A DNA stretch of 64,000 nucleotides, from assembly GCF_900112795.1 (NCBI RefSeq), contig NZ_FONA01000002.1:186001-250000 (forward strand), written 5' to 3'. Below the pieces are notes generated by a model, which searched no databases, was not told the DNA's origin, and saw only the letters and a list, made by a program, of their open reading frames with translations. The DNA comes from Thermophagus xiamenensis. GTDB taxonomy: Bacteria; Bacteroidota; Bacteroidia; Bacteroidales; Marinilabiliaceae. Position 1 is the first letter of the stretch. Every line of letters begins with the position of its first letter. Shown here piece after piece: positions 33,245-44,815 of the stretch. A program made the position numbers and the translations under genes.

Positions 33245-33578
33245 AGATTGGTATCTTTTTAGATATAAGATGTAAAGAGATAATTTACATTTAGATACCA
33301 TTGTTGTGGATTTGCAATTCACTCCGGTGTAAAGTCCGAAAACCAATCCTACTCTGCTCTTAGGGATAAATAAACTAAGAGCACAAATCGTTTTAACATT
33401 AATTCCATTCACCACACATGGCCACCAAAAACAATATCACTATTTTCCCAAACTCCTAATATACAACCCATTGACACACAAACACACTACAAAAAACCAA
33501 TATTGGCAATAAAAACTATTGCAAGCGAGATTACAAGGGAATAATTTTGCTATTGTTAATCACTTAAAACCCATAAAC
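33245..33578. other. intergenic region with a degenerate REP-like unit
   Basis: No gene. At 33303-33326 TTGTGGATTTGCAATTCACTCCGG is a decayed copy of the REP palindromes seen at 39.9-44.7 kb. The rest is AT-rich leader ahead of the DUF3244 gene. Confidence 0.4.
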
Positions 33579-35597: not shown

Positions 35598-35620
35598 CGG
35601 TGTGGATTTGCAGTCCATAC
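35598..35620 (+). repeat. degenerate REP-like palindrome
   Basis: CGGTGTGGATTTGCAGTCCATACCG is a decayed copy of the TGTGGATTTGNAATCCACA hairpin of the 40-44 kb island. It lies just before the barrel gene. Confidence 0.45.
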
Positions 35621-35662
35621 CGACGTGGAACCAATTTAATAAACCTCACCGCAATAATAAGT

Positions 35663-39670: not shown

Positions 39671-40121
39671 GTCATTCGAGTTTCATGATGAAAGGAATAC
39701 AGATAAGTTCATAGGGATAAAAAATCTTTTTTACCTTTAACCAATGGTGACAAAGCCAATGGCCATCAGAGTAGCGCCTGACAAAAACACGTTGTGGTAT
39801 TTAAATTTCTTCATAAATGTCAGTGGAAAAGAGAGTAGACCTCACCCATCTGGTAGAGAGCTATGCCGGTGATTTATATTCCTGGGCATTACATAAAGTT
39901 TCCGATAAGGAACCATGTCGTTGTGGATTTGTAATCCACAACGTCTTAATCCAGGGATTTGCAATCCCGGACTAGAACAATTTTCCTTCATTTTCTGAAA
40001 TTAGGACTTACTAATTATCTTTCAATTTTTTCCATCAACTTTTCTTTGGATTAATTTTTGGGGGGATTGCAAATCCAATGTTTTTTCCGGCGTGGATTAC
40101 AAATCCACGCCTACGAGATAG
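39671..40121. other. intergenic region: left repeat flanking the RAYT gene
   Basis: After 240 bp of unremarkable sequence comes a ~205-bp block (39911-40115) with two REP-like palindromes at one end and one at the other. It is copied at 40831-41036. Confidence 0.6.
39911..40115. repeat. left direct repeat carrying REP palindromes
   Basis: Nearly identical to 40831-41036, 920 bp away. It contains CGTTGTGGATT-TGT-AATCCACAACG (39919-39943, 11-bp arms), GGGATTTGCAATCCC (39954-39968), and GGCGTGGATT-ACA-AATCCACGCC (40089-40111). The last is followed by CTAC, the reverse complement of the GTAG tetranucleotide that marks enterobacterial REPs. Confidence 0.85.
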
Positions 40122-40664
40122 CTAAAACAATAATTCCACTTGCAACAAGCCGGGCTCACCCGCATAATTTTTCGCAGAGCTATATTTATATTCATGAGGC
40201 TCGTCAACTATTTCTGCGACTACAGGATTCATATGAATGTAATTTAATTTCTGCTTCAAAAAATCCTCAAGAAATATCTCTTGTTCAGCATTTCCCCTCT
40301 GCCAAACGGTGAAATTTTTTATTTTTTTATTATACCGCCCGGCTTTGTAAAAAATATCCAACATCCACTCTCTCCGACTTTCTGCTTGTGTTTTAATAGC
40401 CTCAACTATCTTTTTGCTGGTAAATTTTTTAAAATCCCTGATAATATCAGAATGTTTTACACCTTCTTTTGCTCCTGAAATCAAATGAAGATGGTTACTC
40501 ATCAAAACCCATGCATACAGTATTAACCCTTTATTTTCCTGACAGTATTTCAAGGCATCAACTATGATATGCTTATGACAAGGTCGAGTGAATACATCTA
40601 CCCAGTTTACAACAGTCATGGTAGAAAAATATATCTCACGGGTTATTCTGCGAGCTATATCCAT
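40122..40664 (-). CDS. REP-associated tyrosine transposase (RAYT, TnpA_REP)
   Basis: The 180-residue protein is an IS200/IS605-like HUH enzyme: MSNHLHLIS supplies the HxH metal site (H58, H60), and KLNYIHMNPV holds the catalytic Tyr142. WQRGNAEQEI before it recalls the RAYT pattern W-Q-x-x-Y/F. RAYTs are single-copy domesticated transposases that bind and cut REP palindromes. Here GTAG-preceded palindromes flank it on both sides and fill the next 4 kb, strong support for this assignment. The gene begins and ends within a few bases of its flanking repeats. Confidence 0.9.
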   Translation of the reverse strand: MDIARRITREIYFSTMTVVNWVDVFTRPCHKHIIVDALKYCQENKGLILYAWVLMSNHLHLISGAKEGVKHSDIIRDFKKFTSKKIVEAIKTQAESRREWMLDIFYKAGRYNKKIKNFTVWQRGNAEQEIFLEDFLKQKLNYIHMNPVVAEIVDEPHEYKYSSAKNYAGEPGLLQVELLF

Positions 40665-40754
40665 ACCTCATTCTTTTCAATCTGTTTCCTCTCGATTACA
40701 AATCTATAATTTTTATTCTGTGAAGAATTCCTTTATTTTTCACTTAGCTATCGT

Positions 40755-40806
40755 CGTTGTGGATTTCCGAATCCACAACGCTTTATTTCCGGGATTTGCA
40801 ATTCCG
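40755..40806. repeat. REP-like doublet
   Basis: CGTTGTGGATT-TCCG-AATCCACAACG (40755-40780) is followed by a CCGGGATTTGCAATTCCG hairpin, the same two-palindrome order as elsewhere in the island. Confidence 0.75.
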
Positions 40807-40830
40807 TTTTAATTACTGTTTTTCCCAATT

Positions 40831-41036
40831 AACCATGTCGTTGTGGATTTGTAATCCACAACGTCTTAATCCAGGGATTTGCAATCCCGGACTAGTCCAA
40901 TTTTCCTTCATTTTCTGAAATTAGGACTTACTAATTATCTTTCAATTTTTTCCATCAACTTTTCTTTGGATTAATTTTTGGGGCTTGCAAATCCAATGTT
41001 TTTTTCCGGCATGGATTACAAATCCACGCCTACGAG
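40831..41036. repeat. right direct repeat carrying REP palindromes
   Basis: Copy of 39911-40115 with a few changes (ACTAGTCC for ACTAGAAC, a shorter G-run, GGCATGG for GGCGTGG). Palindromes at 40839-40863 and 41008-41030; TACG follows the last one. Confidence 0.85.
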
Positions 41037-41297
41037 GGGTTTTTCCACTTAGCCCTAAATTATGATTCACTGGCTTTTATGCCTGCTATATCAATATCTT
41101 TTTATTGGAATTTGTTTTTGTGGATAGTAAATCACGCATACTTCACAAACCATCTCATCATCGAACCACGCCCCAAAAGTTAACACCTATTAATTTTTCT
41201 TAATCTTTTGTTAAAATAAATTTTCGCTGTCAGGAAAAAGAAAATGCACCGACCAATGTAGTAAATCAAAACAAGTCTCACTTAAAAATAAACAGTT

Positions 41298-41654
41298 ATG
41301 ACAAAGATTGCCATTTTAGTGTTTTCTGACACCAACAGTGCAGAAGCATTAGGAAAAGTTGCCAATGCCTTTACCCTGGCCAGTGAGGCCACTGAAGCCG
41401 GCGACCAACTTAAAATCATTTTCGAAGGCGCCGGAACCAAATGGATTGGTGAACTCGAAAAAGAAGACCATAAAGTGCATGCGATGTACAAGGCGCTAAA
41501 GGATAAAATAACAGGCGCTTGTTCGTTTTGTGCCAAGGCTTACGGTGTAAAAAGCCAGGTGGAAAAGGCCGGTATTCCCTTATTAAGTGAATACAAGGAC
41601 CATCCCAGCATTCGCACCCTCATAGCGGAGGGATTCCACATTATAAGTTTCTAA
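41298..41654 (+). CDS. DsrE family protein
   Basis: A 118-residue soluble DsrE/DsrF-like fold: TKIAILVFSDTNSAEALGKVANAF, DQLKIIFEGAGTKWIGEL, then ITGACSFCAKAYGV and HIISF at the end. The Cys pair in ACSFC sits where many DsrE-like proteins carry the persulfide-relay Cys. It may take part in sulfur transfer with the neighbouring thioredoxin-like proteins, but single-subunit DsrE proteins are often of unknown role. Confidence 0.88.
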   Translation: MTKIAILVFSDTNSAEALGKVANAFTLASEATEAGDQLKIIFEGAGTKWIGELEKEDHKVHAMYKALKDKITGACSFCAKAYGVKSQVEKAGIPLLSEYKDHPSIRTLIAEGFHIISF

Positions 41655-41837
41655 ACATCAACTTTTTAAATAACAAAACGAGCAGCCCAAACTAAGTTTT
41701 ATATAAAAAAGCAAGGGCAATAGACTGTTAGGCGATTAGGCCGCCAGAGTGCTTCAAACAACTTTGAACTACAATCTTTGAACTTTTTTGTTCATGCTTG
41801 TTTCATTCAACCAATAACTAAATAAAATTTTACAATT

Positions 41838-42242
41838 ATGAAAGCAAAATCAATTTTAGTAACTCTGACACTCTTCCTTTTGGTATCCTTGTCGGTCCTA
41901 TCACAATCAGATGTAAAGGTTTTAGCAGTGGTGAATCATGCAGAATGGTGCCCCACCTGTCAACACAATGGTGAACGAGCACAGGAAGCCTTTAAAGAAG
42001 CGAATACCGATGGAACTATCAAATTTGTTGTCAATGACCTTACCAATGACGACACCAAGGCACAATCGGCACAGGCCTTAAAAGATGTAGGCCTCGATAA
42101 GGTTATGACCCAACATAAAGGGACCGGAGTGGTCTATCTGTTTGATGCAAAAAACAAAACGTTTATTAACAAAGTCAGTGTCGCCAAAAGTAACGAAGAA
42201 ATCATAAAAGCTCTGCTCAGTGCTAAAAACAAGATAAACTAA
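41838..42242 (+). CDS. exported thioredoxin-like protein with CPTC motif
   Basis: The 134-residue protein has a signal peptide (ILVTLTLFLLVSLSVLSQ) and a thioredoxin-like core: VVNHAEWCPTCQHNGER provides a CxxC active site, followed by FVVNDLTNDDTKA. The canonical cis-Pro loop is replaced by GTGVVYLFD, so it may not be a general disulfide reductase. It acts in the periplasm. A terminator follows. Confidence 0.82.
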   Translation: MKAKSILVTLTLFLLVSLSVLSQSDVKVLAVVNHAEWCPTCQHNGERAQEAFKEANTDGTIKFVVNDLTNDDTKAQSAQALKDVGLDKVMTQHKGTGVVYLFDAKNKTFINKVSVAKSNEEIIKALLSAKNKIN

Positions 42243-42262
42243 GTTATTTTTCCCAAAATTGA

Positions 42263-42296
42263 GCTGTCCCGGAAAATAGGGACAGCTTCATTTTTG
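42263..42296 (+). terminator. terminator after the thioredoxin-like gene
   Basis: GCTGTCCC (42263-42270) pairs with GGGACAGC (42279-42286), followed by TTCATTTTT. Confidence 0.85.
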
Positions 42297-42363
42297 TAAT
42301 TTTGGTTTTGCCAAACAATTTAAACCACTTTTAAAAGGATATCCAAGTTAAAAATCTTATAAT

Positions 42364-42930
42364 ATGAAACTGCAATCAGGTAATAACGCCATCGATTTTA
42401 CGGCCCAAGACATTCATGGCAAGGAAATACGTTTATCAAATTATCGGGGCCAGAAAATCATATTGAGTTTTTTCAGAAATGTAAATTGTCCTTTTTGCAA
42501 CCGCAGAGTTCATCAATTGATGTTTAACAATATTCATTTTAAAAATGCGGGGGTACAACTGGTTCTTTTATTCGAAAGCTCCAATGAGAAACTCCTATCC
42601 AGCTCTTTCCATCGCGGTATCAGCCCATGGCCATTAATTGGTGACCCGGAAAAGAAAATTTACAAACTTTACGGGGTGGAACAATCTACGATAAAAATGA
42701 TGAAAACCATGTTTGTGGCCAATTTAAATCAGGCTAAAAAGGAAACCAAAGAGCTGAATCTACCTCAGGATAAAGATGCAAGCATGAATCTTATTCCGGC
42801 CGATTTTCTTATCGATGAAAACTTTAAAATTGTCAAAGCCCATTATGGCAAACATCTGGATGACCATATCGATTTCAATGAATTAAAAGCCTTTGCCGGT
42901 ATTGGTAATCAGTTTAAAAAGACGAGTTAA
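42364..42930 (+). CDS. peroxiredoxin-like (AhpC/TSA-type) protein
   Basis: The 188-residue thioredoxin-fold protein has FTAQDIHGKEIRLSNYRGQKIILSFFRNVNCPFCNRR: a CxxC where 1-Cys or 2-Cys peroxiredoxins have the peroxidatic Cys, as in the peroxiredoxin-like family. LIPADFLIDENFKIVKAHYG is the conserved C-terminal strand pair with cis-Pro. No signal peptide. It probably reduces peroxides or disulfides in the cytoplasm. Confidence 0.85.
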   Translation: MKLQSGNNAIDFTAQDIHGKEIRLSNYRGQKIILSFFRNVNCPFCNRRVHQLMFNNIHFKNAGVQLVLLFESSNEKLLSSSFHRGISPWPLIGDPEKKIYKLYGVEQSTIKMMKTMFVANLNQAKKETKELNLPQDKDASMNLIPADFLIDENFKIVKAHYGKHLDDHIDFNELKAFAGIGNQFKKTS

Positions 42931-43167
42931 CCAATTTTTTATATCCATTTTCGAAGTTTTAACTGGAACTTCTCTCCCACCTTATTCCCTACCCCAAATT
43001 ATTTTTCCCCATTTTTCCATTATGGCTTACAAATTTCCCCAAAGTCCGTACTGGACCAATAAAATTTACCACACTAATTGTCAACAAAATCCTTACTCGC
43101 GGAAAAATTAATGGCTATTTTTTTCAGATTTTTGGCGGAAATGCGTACTTTTGCGCATCCTTTAAAA

Positions 43168-43243
<76 letters not shown>

Positions 43244-43245
43244 TT

Positions 43246-43280
43246 AAAGACGATTCGTAATTTTACGGGTCGTCTTTTTT
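43246..43280 (+). terminator. tRNA-Lys terminator
   Basis: AAAGACGA pairs with TCGTCTTT, followed by a T-run, directly after the tRNA. Confidence 0.85.
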
Positions 43281-43407
43281 TATAATCCCTGTTGTTATAG
43301 CTTGCAATCAACAACAACGTGTCAAATGGGACTTGTATTTGAACATTCGGAGTTGGCTATTTCGGTCAGACTATGCCACCGATTTCGGTCAAAATGTGCC
43401 AGTGTCG

Positions 43408-43578
43408 GAGATAACCTTTCCCAATACTTAGGATAACCTTTCCCGACATCCGGGATAACCTTATCCCGACACTTGGGATAACCTTTCCCAACACTTGGGA
43501 TAACCTTATCCCGACACCGGGGATAACCTTTCCCAACACTTGGGATAACCTTTCTCAACATCAGAAATAACCTTACTA
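43408..43578. repeat. 22-bp tandem array, copy 1
   Basis: About eight units of GGATAACCTTTCCCAACACT-TG, with variants CCTTATCCCGACA and a 23-bp form. Units differ at a few positions, so the array is old or drifting. Confidence 0.85.
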
Positions 43579-43610
43579 CTACCATCCCACCTGTTTCACA
43601 TTCAACCGCT

Positions 43611-43809
43611 CATCGTCGTTGTGGATTTCCCAATCCACAACGCTTTAATACCGGGATTTGTAATCCCATTTAAATTACGTTTTTTTCCACTTAGCAAAAA
43701 ACTATAATTCATTGGCTTTTATGCCTGATATATCAATATCTTTACCTTTGGTTTTGCTTTTGTGGATTGCAAATCCACTTAGTTCTGCGTGGATTACAAA
43801 TCCACGCAG
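43611..43809. repeat. REP block A
   Basis: Palindromes CGTTGTGGATT-TCCC-AATCCACAACG (43617-43642), GGGATTTGTAATCCC (43653-43667), GTGGATTGCAAATCCAC (43762-43778) and CTGCGTGGATT-ACA-AATCCACGCAG (43785-43809). Near copy of block B, about 369 bp downstream. Confidence 0.85.
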
Positions 43810-43813
43810 ACGT

Positions 43814-43961
43814 GAGATAACCTTTCCCAACATCAGGGATAACCTTTCCCAACACTTGGGATAACCTTTCCCAACATCCGGGATAACCTTATCCCGACAC
43901 TTGGGATAACCTTTCCCAACACTTAGGATAACCTTTCTCAACATCAGAAATAACCTTACTA
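43814..43961. repeat. 22-bp tandem array, copy 2
   Basis: About seven units of the same GGATAACCTTTCCCAACA-type repeat, ending like copy 1 in AAATAACCTTACTACTACC. Confidence 0.85.
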
Positions 43962-43979
43962 CTACCATCCCACCTGTTT

Positions 43980-44180
43980 CATCGTCGTTGTGGATTTCCT
44001 AATCCACAACGCTTTAATACCGGGATTTGTAATCCCATTTAAATTACGTTTTTTCCACTTAGCAAAAAACTATAATTCATTGGCTTTTATGCCTGATATA
44101 TCAATATCTTTACCTTTGGTTTTGCTTTTGTGGATTGCAAATCCACTCTTTAGTTCTGCGTGGATTACAAATCCACGCAG
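43980..44180. repeat. REP block B
   Basis: Palindromes at 43986-44011, 44022-44036, 44130-44146 and 44156-44180, in the same order and spacing as block A, with a near-identical spacer (CACTTAGCAAAAAACTATAA). Confidence 0.85.
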
Positions 44181-44189
44181 ACATGTAGG

Positions 44190-44490
44190 TTACAAAAAAA
44201 ATTCCGGATAAGTTAAGTGAAATTTTTCTCTCTGCCTTATGCAAAAAATTTCCTGTAGGTTACCGGAAAAATTTCTCGTAAGGCTTAAAGAAAAATTTTG
44301 GTTAAGGCTGCCAAAAAGTTTCGTTAACCTAACGAAAAAATTTCCGTAAGGCTACCGAAAAGTTTCGTTAAGGCTGCCAAAAAATTCCGTTAACGCTGCC
44401 AAATTTTTTCTGCCTGCCTTATGAAAAATTTTTCCTGCTAACCTATGAGAAAAAATTTTTGGTAAGTTATGAGCAATTTTTTTACGGTTT
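44190..44490. repeat. degenerate A/T-rich tandem array
   Basis: A repeating idea of (G)AAAAATTT(C)CGTAAGGCTACC, with units of 20-30 bp: AAAAAGTTTCGTTAACCTAA, AAAAAATTTCCGTAAGGC, AAAAGTTTCGTTAAGGCTGC, AAAAAATTCCGTTAACGC and so on. Each has an AAATTT-like core followed by a TAAGGC or TAACCT core. No function is evident. Confidence 0.65.
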
Positions 44491-44520
44491 TTCCACCAAA
44501 GAGATTATAAAACCCTTGGT

Positions 44521-44572
44521 CGTTGTGTATTTACAATCCACAACGCCCTAATAACGGGATTTATAATCCCGT
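44521..44572. repeat. diverged REP doublet
   Basis: CGTTGTGTATTTACAATCCACAACG has mismatches in its arms; ACGGGATTTATAATCCCGT is intact. Confidence 0.65.
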
Positions 44573-44815
44573 CCTCATATCCGAAAAAATTAAATTGTAT
44601 TTAAACCTTCAATAATTTTCGTGTTGGATTGGGAAATTTTTCAATGTGAATTGCAAATCCACGCAGACGTAAGGAGACAATTAGGTGTCCGCCTTTCCCC
44701 TCTTCAACCTCTACCCGACAGCCATTCTGCCTTTCCATACTATACGACCTAAGTCCTTTACTCACCGAAAGTCATATACGATGGAATCCCCGGCTTGAGG
44801 TATTATTCTGACTCT

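What the first reader, a model, noticed from the sequence alone, without database searches (positions are those of the whole stretch)
39911..44668. RAYT transposase with a dense island of REP-like palindromes
A RAYT gene (HxH, Tyr142) is surrounded by at least fifteen palindromes of the form (G)TGGATT-n-AATCCA(C), some preceded by GTAG as in enterobacterial REPs. Most occur as doublets of a 23-26-bp palindrome and a GGGATT-TGC-AATCCC hairpin. REP/RAYT systems are best described in Proteobacteria; the island shows the same logic in Bacteroidota, and degenerate units reach into neighbouring intergenic gaps (33303, 35598, 38848).
Basis: partly seen in the sequence, partly recalled or inferred. 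Interest (0 to 1): 0.7.

Follow-up and report, generated by a model that had tools for sequence, protein, structure and literature searches.

The report
Bacteroidota transposase with paired-hairpin mobile repeats
A single small "REP-associated" transposase gene sits among DNA repeats that fold into pairs of hairpins; a similar design, with a shared hairpin tip and a short label that changes with the enzyme, flanks many related transposases in the Bacteroidota phylum, giving a concrete, testable rule for a group of these enzymes on which I found no biochemistry.

Summary
An intact RAYT (window 40122-40664, minus strand; H58/H60, Y142), the only Y1_Tnp match in its 3.9-Mb genome, lies in an island with 17 GGATT-n-AATCC palindromes; the other 59 kb of the window have none. 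Motifs fit RAYT subclass 2.6 (Bertels group 5), already reported from Bacteroidetes with 'atypical secondary structures' (PMC6006769). So the system is not new, and its repeats are not GTAG-type REPs.

What I add is the anatomy. Around related RAYTs in many Bacteroidota, a repeat arm is a trinucleotide tag (mostly GCT, GTT or GTC), a 10-bp stem, a TGC/TGT loop usually closed by GATT/AATC, and a second hairpin about 30 nt inward. Arms pair head-to-head; outer stems usually differ, tags usually match, and tags cluster on the RAYT tree. Single stem mismatches are mostly G.T, rarely A.C, on the tagged strand, pointing to single-strand folding. A covariance model trained without this genome finds 20 arms in it, 10 in the island. 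One unit is nested in another; one relative holds several dispersed RAYT copies bounded by such arms. Some lineages have other stems. Cleavage and mobility are unproven.

The parts
40122..40664 (-). RAYT (TnpA_REP) gene, 180 aa, intact; HuH = H58-x-H60, W121-Q122, Y142-IHMNP, SSA162-164
39916..40115 (.). REPIN-like unit U1 (left arm 39916-39973 +, right arm 40058-40115 -); its right arm starts 6 nt after the RAYT stop codon; tags GTC (left) and GTA (right)
   Evidence: R1 covariance model 50.8 and 47.2 bits
40836..41034 (.). REPIN-like unit U2 (arms 40836-40893 + and 40976-41034 -), near-copy of U1, nested inside U3
   Evidence: R1 50.8 and 34.5 bits; alignment
40752..41140 (.). unit U3 (left arm 40752-40811 +; spacer and decayed right end 41037 to about 41140), interrupted by U2
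   Evidence: R1 35.5 bits; U3 with U2 taken out is colinear with U4 and U5
43614..43812 (.). REPIN-like unit U4 (arms 43614-43672 + and 43758-43812 -), tags GTC and GTC
   Evidence: R1 44.7 and 47.0 bits
43983..44183 (.). REPIN-like unit U5 (arms 43983-44041 + and 44126-44183 -), tags GTC and GTC; tandem copy of U4 with its flank
   Evidence: R1 44.6 and 50.8 bits; period-383 tandem repeat 43432-44182
44517..44676 (.). unit U6: left arm 44517-44575 +, decayed right arm about 44646-44676 -
   Evidence: R1 32.3 bits and 9.9 bits
40694..40704 (-). weak hairpin just upstream of the RAYT start, possibly a relic of an older enclosing arm (inference, not significant)
   Evidence: R1 9.8 bits, E 0.94
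35599..35621 (+). possible decayed single hairpin; not significant
   Evidence: R1 11.5 bits, E 0.31
33306..33322 (+). possible decayed single hairpin; not significant
   Evidence: R1 9.9 bits, E 0.9

Best explanation
A RAYT of subclass 2.6 (Bertels group 5) with its cognate repeat family. The repeats are REPIN-like units of about 160-205 bp: two arms in head-to-head orientation. Each arm is a trinucleotide tag (GTC here, GTA in two arms), an outer hairpin of 10-12 bp with tip GATT-TG(C/T)-AATC, and a second hairpin of the same tip about 30 nt inward. Shown by sequence: this anatomy, its recurrence around many related RAYTs of the phylum, tags that usually match at both ends and cluster on the RAYT tree, strand-biased G.T mismatches, one unit nested in another, and several dispersed RAYT copies bounded by such arms in one relative genome. 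Inferred: the RAYT binds the folded tagged strand as single-stranded DNA, uses the tag as the guide that sets the cleavage site (as for IS608 and the Marinomonas REPtron), cleaves through Y142, and so moves units and sometimes its own gene. Some copies here arose by local tandem duplication, not transposition.
For: Protein; AlphaFold model pLDDT 92.6 whose best PDB match is E. coli RAYT bound to a REP hairpin (4er8_A, E 3e-8). Arms: 153 unique oriented hairpins contributed by 68 of 110 RAYT loci, tag G 84%, C/T 87%, T 83%, stem exactly 10 bp in 107, loop TGC/TGT in 136. Inner hairpin: 126 of 148 outer hairpins, 119 of them at 28-31 nt, against 22 of 148 (upstream control) and 6 of 148 (shuffled). 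Tags equal at both ends in 29 of 38 loci against 13.2 shuffled (maximum 22 in 10,000). Tag class needs 6 changes on a tree of 55 RAYTs against 18.5 shuffled. Single stem mismatches on the tagged strand: 31 G.T against 2 A.C, 16 other (23 against 2 loci, p 1.9e-5), on both the sense (19) and antisense (12) strand of the gene. Enrichment near the gene in the 80 relatives: 53 and 72 core hairpins in 24 and 23 kb of flank against 3 and 3 in 126 and 113 kb further out and 0 in 42 kb of gene. Own genome: 20 arms at E <= 1.1e-4 by a model trained without it. Nested unit. Multi-copy RAYT unit with ends at or near the tags.
Against: No binding, cleavage or transposition was tested. U4/U5 and two of the C31 units (by inspection) are tandem duplications. 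In this window the RAYT lies between units, not inside one, unlike 29 of 39 loci with hairpins on both sides. Tags disagree in 9 of 38 loci, this window among them: U1 and U2 have GTC left and GTA right, U4 and U5 GTC on both sides. 10 of 33 loci share an outer stem between opposite ends. Only 40 (5') and 50 (3') of the 80 relatives have a core-tip hairpin within 300 bp, and of the 29 loci of the same family only 2 and 3; 42 of 110 loci contributed no unique hairpin, a few because theirs duplicated another's. Clustering of tags on the tree also follows from gene and flanks being inherited together. Six RAYT-negative genomes of the family carry arms. The G.T excess could come from strand-biased C-to-T mutation. 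The U2 insertion in U3 carries 14-15 extra bases, so its junction is unclear.
Confidence: 0.8

Rival explanations
1. The palindromes are transcription terminators, mRNA-stabilising hairpins or double-stranded binding sites for a regulator, and the RAYT is a chance neighbour.
For: 7 of the 10 arms outside the window overlap no ORF of 80 aa or more. Perfect palindromes are typical regulator sites (general knowledge).
Against: Core-tip hairpins concentrate around RAYT genes; a one-sided tag clusters on the RAYT tree; G.T mismatches favour the tagged strand whether it is sense or antisense to the gene; units look mobile.
Confidence: 0.07
2. It is simply an IS200/IS605-type insertion sequence (with internally deleted derivatives) and not a REP/RAYT system.
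For: One relative genome has several 91-98% identical RAYT copies with different flanks and common ends; the fold also matches TnpA_IS200.
Against: The IS200 profile scores 21 bits against a cut-off of 55, the RAYT profile 103 against 80; arms are inverted rather than on one strand; one gene but 20 arms in this genome.
Confidence: 0.1
3. A dead system: RAYT and repeats are relics that spread long ago and now change only by duplication and decay.
For: Decayed ends in U3 and U6, tandem duplications, two weak relics in neighbouring gaps; RAYT-negative genomes that still carry arms.
Against: RAYT ORF intact with the catalytic residues conserved; U1 and U2 are nearly identical with different flanks.
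Confidence: 0.25

Closest known systems
TnpA_REP/RAYT subclass 2.6 = Bertels group 5 (PMC6006769, passages and section 13 read)
   Same: NH[LIV]H, WQ, YIHxNP motifs, about 180 aa, HuH-Tyr about 82 residues, SS motif after the core, Bacteroidetes, flanking hairpins with copies elsewhere in the genome
   Different: The text I read calls the hairpins 'atypical' and gives no consensus; here tag, stem length, tip, second hairpin and pairing rules are described
CGTC-tagged REPs (Di Nocera 2013, PMC3733652; abstract, passages, section 16 read)
   Same: Tag CGTC/TGTC directly 5' of a short hairpin, inverted pairs, heterodimers in some families, reported also from Bacteroidetes
   Different: Their stems are 8-9 bp with loops of 4-5 nt, and no tyrosine transposase gene was found flanked by them; here a GTC tag flanks a RAYT. 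Kinship between the two was not tested
E. coli, Stenotrophomonas and Marinomonas REPtrons, groups 2 and 3 (PMC8266576; abstract and passages read; 4er8 structure)
   Same: HuH-Tyr enzyme, 5' tag plus hairpin, tag acts as cleavage guide in the Marinomonas case, repeats near the gene in Marinomonas
   Different: GTAG tag; no second hairpin at a fixed distance is mentioned in the passages I read; in vitro data exist for these groups, none seen for group 5
REPINs of Pseudomonas (PMC3116915, search listing only)
   Same: Two inverted REPs as a mobile unit linked to a RAYT (recalled)
   Different: Hundreds of copies and single-hairpin ends (recalled), against 20 double-hairpin arms here
IS608/ISDra2 (IS200/IS605)
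   Same: Fold and presumed single-strand chemistry
   Different: Subterminal hairpins with their guides 5' of each (PMC6006769 passage); this protein is below the IS200 cut-off

Membership tests
RAYT (TnpA_REP) | Scores over the curated RAYT profile and has HuH and Tyr motifs | tested here: met
   NF047646 103.2 bits against 80; H58, H60, Y142
RAYT (TnpA_REP) | Fold of the E. coli RAYT | tested here: met
   4er8_A best PDB match of the predicted model, E 3e-8, TM 0.58-0.63; no PDB match by sequence
Subclass 2.6 / group 5 | NH[LIV]H, WQ, YIH[QN]NP, HuH-Tyr median 82, mean 179 aa, SS motif | tested here: met
   NHLH, WQ, YIHMNP (M for Q/N), H60 to Y142 = 82 (the paper's way of counting not checked), 180 aa, SSA; definitions from PMC6006769. 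The subclass HMM was not available
Subclass 2.6 / group 5 | Flanked by hairpins with copies elsewhere in the genome | tested here: met
   20 arms, 10 outside the window
GTAG-type REP | GTAG/GTGG tetranucleotide 5' of the hairpin | tested here: not met
   In the window GTC in 8 arms, CGTA then G in two; over 153 hairpins GCT 70, GTT 39, GTC 6
CGTC-type REP (Di Nocera) | CGTC-like tag with 8-9-bp stem and 4-5-nt loop | tested here: inconclusive
   (C/T)GTC tag present in most island arms; stem 10-12 bp and loop 3 (4 in three arms) do not fit
REPIN | Two inverted REPs as one unit | tested here: met
   U1, U2, U4, U5 complete in the window
REPIN | Unit moves as a whole in trans by the RAYT | not testable with these tools
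   Only indirect: nested unit
IS200/IS605 transposase | Over the IS200 curated cut-off | tested here: not met
   21 bits against 55

The most novel reading that the evidence does not exclude
Bacteroidota use their own REP code. The tip of the hairpin is shared by most lineages sampled (not by all: the same family and Chryseobacterium show other stems) while the guide trinucleotide changes with the RAYT clade. Each end is a double hairpin phased at 30 nt, which implies that the enzyme grips two hairpins per end and acts on opposite strands at the two ends, a transposition architecture unlike the GTAG REPtrons. In some hosts the RAYT unit is an autonomous mobile element rather than a domesticated gene.
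Probability: 0.35. Interest if true: 0.75.

Novelty: new variant of a known kind. Interest (0 to 1): 0.55.

Why it matters
I saw in vitro data only for RAYT groups 2 and 3 (PMC8266576, abstract and passages). This gives group 5 an explicit substrate (tag, 10-bp stem, TGC tip, second hairpin at 30 nt) that can be ordered as oligonucleotides. Natural tag variants that cluster with the protein tree are a ready-made set for testing whether the tag programs the cleavage site. The GTC tags here also point to a possible transposase partner for CGTC-tagged repeats, reported in 2013 as lacking one, though kinship was not tested.

Tried and rejected
GTAG kinship: rejected, since the tag is mostly GTC/GCT/GTT. 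The 38848 'unit': not detected. A search for a cleavage dinucleotide that co-varies with the tag: flanks 5' of the tag carry little information, and the 3' linker is conserved mainly in the GTT set, so no site could be named. Residues that track the tag (E10, S14, L136, Q128, V53 and others) are confounded by phylogeny and are leads only; 58 loci had a tag label and 3 were dropped there for stops in frame. Pair covariation counts on 48 arms are not independent evidence, because those hairpins were chosen for intact stems. The core-pattern/RAYT link over 392 phylum genomes is weak at one or more copies (41 of 103 against 84 of 289, p 0.049) and clearer at three or more (16 of 103 against 7 of 289, p 9e-6). 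None of the genome-level tests corrects for shared ancestry, and genome searches score only part of their first-look candidates, so counts are lower bounds. Literature: the core 13-mers gave 3 unrelated papers by title; searches joining RAYT/REP with Bacteroidetes gave PMC3733652 and PMC6006769 as the relevant titles, other papers of those listings were not opened. PMC2817692 was seen in passages (no mention of Bacteroid-), PMC8049555 only by a term search without hits. Bertels 2017 was not held and is known here only through PMC6006769; figures and supplements were not seen, so a consensus for subclass 2.6 may exist there.
Full report
WHAT IS THERE. The window holds a 180-aa ORF (40122-40664, minus strand) that scores over the curated RAYT profile (103 bits, cut-off 80) and over Pfam Y1_Tnp (29.5, cut-off 23). 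It is the only Y1_Tnp match at E <= 0.01 in the 3.9-Mb genome (one match also with the protein itself at E <= 1e-10). Between 39911 and 44700, GGATT-N3/4-AATCC occurs 17 times and nowhere else in the window; a first-order Markov model of the window predicts 0.03.

THE ENZYME. In 40 aligned sequences (the window and 39 relatives) H58, W121, Q122, Y142, N146, P147 and S162-S163-A164 are among the invariant columns and H60 is nearly invariant. H60 to Y142 is 82 residues, the length 180, the Tyr motif YIHMNP. PMC6006769 (passages and section 13 read) gives for subclass 2.6: NH[LIV]H, WQ, YIH[QN]NP, HuH-Tyr median 82, mean length 179, an SS motif, mostly Bacteroidetes, and 'atypical secondary structures'. 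The one difference I see is M for Q/N. An AlphaFold model (pLDDT 92.6) has E. coli RAYT bound to a REP hairpin, 4er8_A, as best PDB match. By sequence alone no PDB chain matched at E <= 0.001.

THE ARM. Hairpins within 600 bp of the gene with loop 3, perfect stem of at least 8 and at least 3 G/C were oriented by the loop alone. Of 180 found, 10 could not be oriented; 153 unique ones came from 68 loci (loci whose hairpins only duplicate another's are not counted). Directly 5' of a 10-bp stem stands G (84%), C/T (87%), T (83%); the stem is exactly 10 bp in 107 of 153; the loop is TGC or TGT in 136; the GATT/AATC columns are 86-98% conserved, while the outer stem varies. Beyond the tag the 5' side carries little information, which suggests that the tag is near the edge of the element. 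Within 300 bp of the gene in the 80 relatives, 53 of 62 (5') and 72 of 79 (3') hairpins have this tip, in 40 and 50 of the 80 loci, against 3 in 126 kb and 3 in 113 kb further out and 0 in 42 kb of gene. In the 29 same-family loci the tip is rare near the gene (2 and 3 hairpins); several carry instead a related form with stem CGGCGAAGTT, loop TGC or similar, and a GCT or GTT tag (listings).

THE SECOND HAIRPIN. Of 148 outer hairpins with stem 9 or more, 126 have a second one (stem 5 or more) at 20-45 nt inward, 119 of them at 28-31 nt from tip to tip (mode 30) and 108 with an ATT/AAT tip. The same scan upstream of the tag gives 22 of 148, shuffled sequence 6 of 148.

TWO ENDS, ONE TAG. In loci with GATT-tip hairpins in both orientations, outer stems of opposite ends differ in 23 of 33 and share a form in 10. 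Pairs in the same orientation are identical in 65 of 105 cases, opposite ones in 19 of 132; tandem duplication inflates the first figure. Tags agree between the ends in 29 of 38 loci, 13.2 expected by shuffling and at most 22 in 10,000 shuffles; the nine disagreeing tag pairs are, and the window is one of them (U1 and U2 GTC left and GTA right; U4 and U5 GTC on both sides). On a tree of 55 RAYTs the tag class (GC or GT) needs 6 changes, 18.5 when shuffled, none of 500 as low. That shows clustering, which joint inheritance of gene and flanks would also give; it does not by itself prove co-adaptation.

WHICH STRAND FOLDS. Hairpins with exactly one non-Watson-Crick pair and a GC/GT tag show 31 G.T, 2 A.C and 16 other mismatches on the tagged strand (with slightly different bookkeeping, 30, 2 and 16, plus 5, 0 and 13 without such a tag). 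By locus it is 23 against 2 (p 1.9e-5), on both the sense and antisense strand of the RAYT gene. Mismatches cluster at pairs 7-8 from the tip. The simplest reading is selection for folding of the tagged DNA strand; strand-biased deamination could add to it, and related loci are not independent.

THE OWN GENOME. A covariance model of 48 arms from other genomes (R1) finds 20 arms at E <= 1.1e-4: 10 in the island and 10 in contigs C19 (3), C31 (6) and C39 (1), plus marginal ones; 150 of 1440 first-look candidates were scored. In the window it gives U1, U2, U4 and U5 complete, and U3 and U6 with decayed right ends. U2 sits inside U3: with U2 taken out, U3 is colinear with U4 and U5 apart from 14-15 extra bases. 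U4 and U5 are part of a 383-bp tandem repeat, as are two C31 units by inspection, so some copies came from duplication. Of the 10 arms outside the window, 7 overlap no ORF of 80 aa or more and 3 overlap ORFs of 88-114 aa of unknown reality.

GENE POSITION. In 29 of 39 loci with an oriented hairpin on both sides the nearest ones enclose the gene head-to-head; in 3, including this window, the gene lies between units; 7 are mixed. In one MAG (L019, L022, L026) RAYT units of about 700 bp, 91-98% identical, occur on three contigs, two of them on the same contig (plus a partial one), with different flanks by inspection and ends at or a few bases outside the tags. This is the best sign of autonomous mobility, and it is from a relative, not from this genome.

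DISTRIBUTION. Family, 71 genomes: RAYT in 34, arms in 28, both in 22, p 3.4e-5; the core pattern has 257 hits against 2 for the reversed control, with RAYT/core counts 25, 9, 10, 27 and p 1.3e-4. Phylum sample, 392 genomes: weak at one copy, clear at three or more. This genome has the highest core count of that sample (24). None of these tests corrects for shared ancestry.

MECHANISM. Shown: anatomy, recurrence, tag clustering, strand bias, nesting, multi-copy unit in a relative. Inferred from IS608 and the REPtrons (PMC8266576, abstract and passages read): binding of the folded tagged strand, guide-directed cleavage via Y142, movement of the unit. Not shown: any chemistry, exact ends, targets.

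NOVELTY. A new variant of a known kind. Hairpins flanking subclass 2.6 RAYTs in Bacteroidetes are in print. I found no description of the tag, phased double hairpin, matched tags or strand bias in the listings and the passages read, but figures, supplements and Bertels 2017 were not seen.

Noticed in passing
window 43410-43560 and 43814-43958: Tandem arrays of a 22-bp unit (GATAACCTTTCCCAACACTTGG type), split by REPIN U4; 10 of 12 genome matches at up to 2 mismatches lie here, the other two are isolated near-matches; the arrays are part of a 383-bp tandem repeat with U4/U5.
   Followed up: partly
window 44267-44453: A second array of 22-25-nt AT-rich imperfect repeats (AAAAAATTTCGTTAAGGCTGCC) between U5 and U6.
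   Followed up: no
G056 and G036: Genomes with 32 and 25 arms but no RAYT match at E <= 1e-10: orphan repeat populations, or RAYT lost or missing from the assembly.
   Followed up: no
L182-L184: Compact forms with two or three hairpins (loops TGA, TGT and others), about 30 nt apart in L182, in genomes where the arm model matches both strands; perhaps a minimal unit.
   Followed up: partly
L066, L071: Beside L064, orthologous loci where some hairpin tips carry a longer insertion (for example ...GGATT-cctgtctgcctttggctgatg-AATCC...) without loss of the stem.
   Followed up: no
window 40122-40664: The RAYT is closer to several proteins from other families (61-64% identity) than to those found in its own family (best 56%), which suggests horizontal transfer or an old paralogue.
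   Followed up: partly
L081, L082, L085: Chryseobacterium/Epilithonimonas relatives have different flanking repeats (CAAAGTCTCCTGACTTTG hairpins with CCCGCT edges), a divergent repeat type.
   Followed up: no
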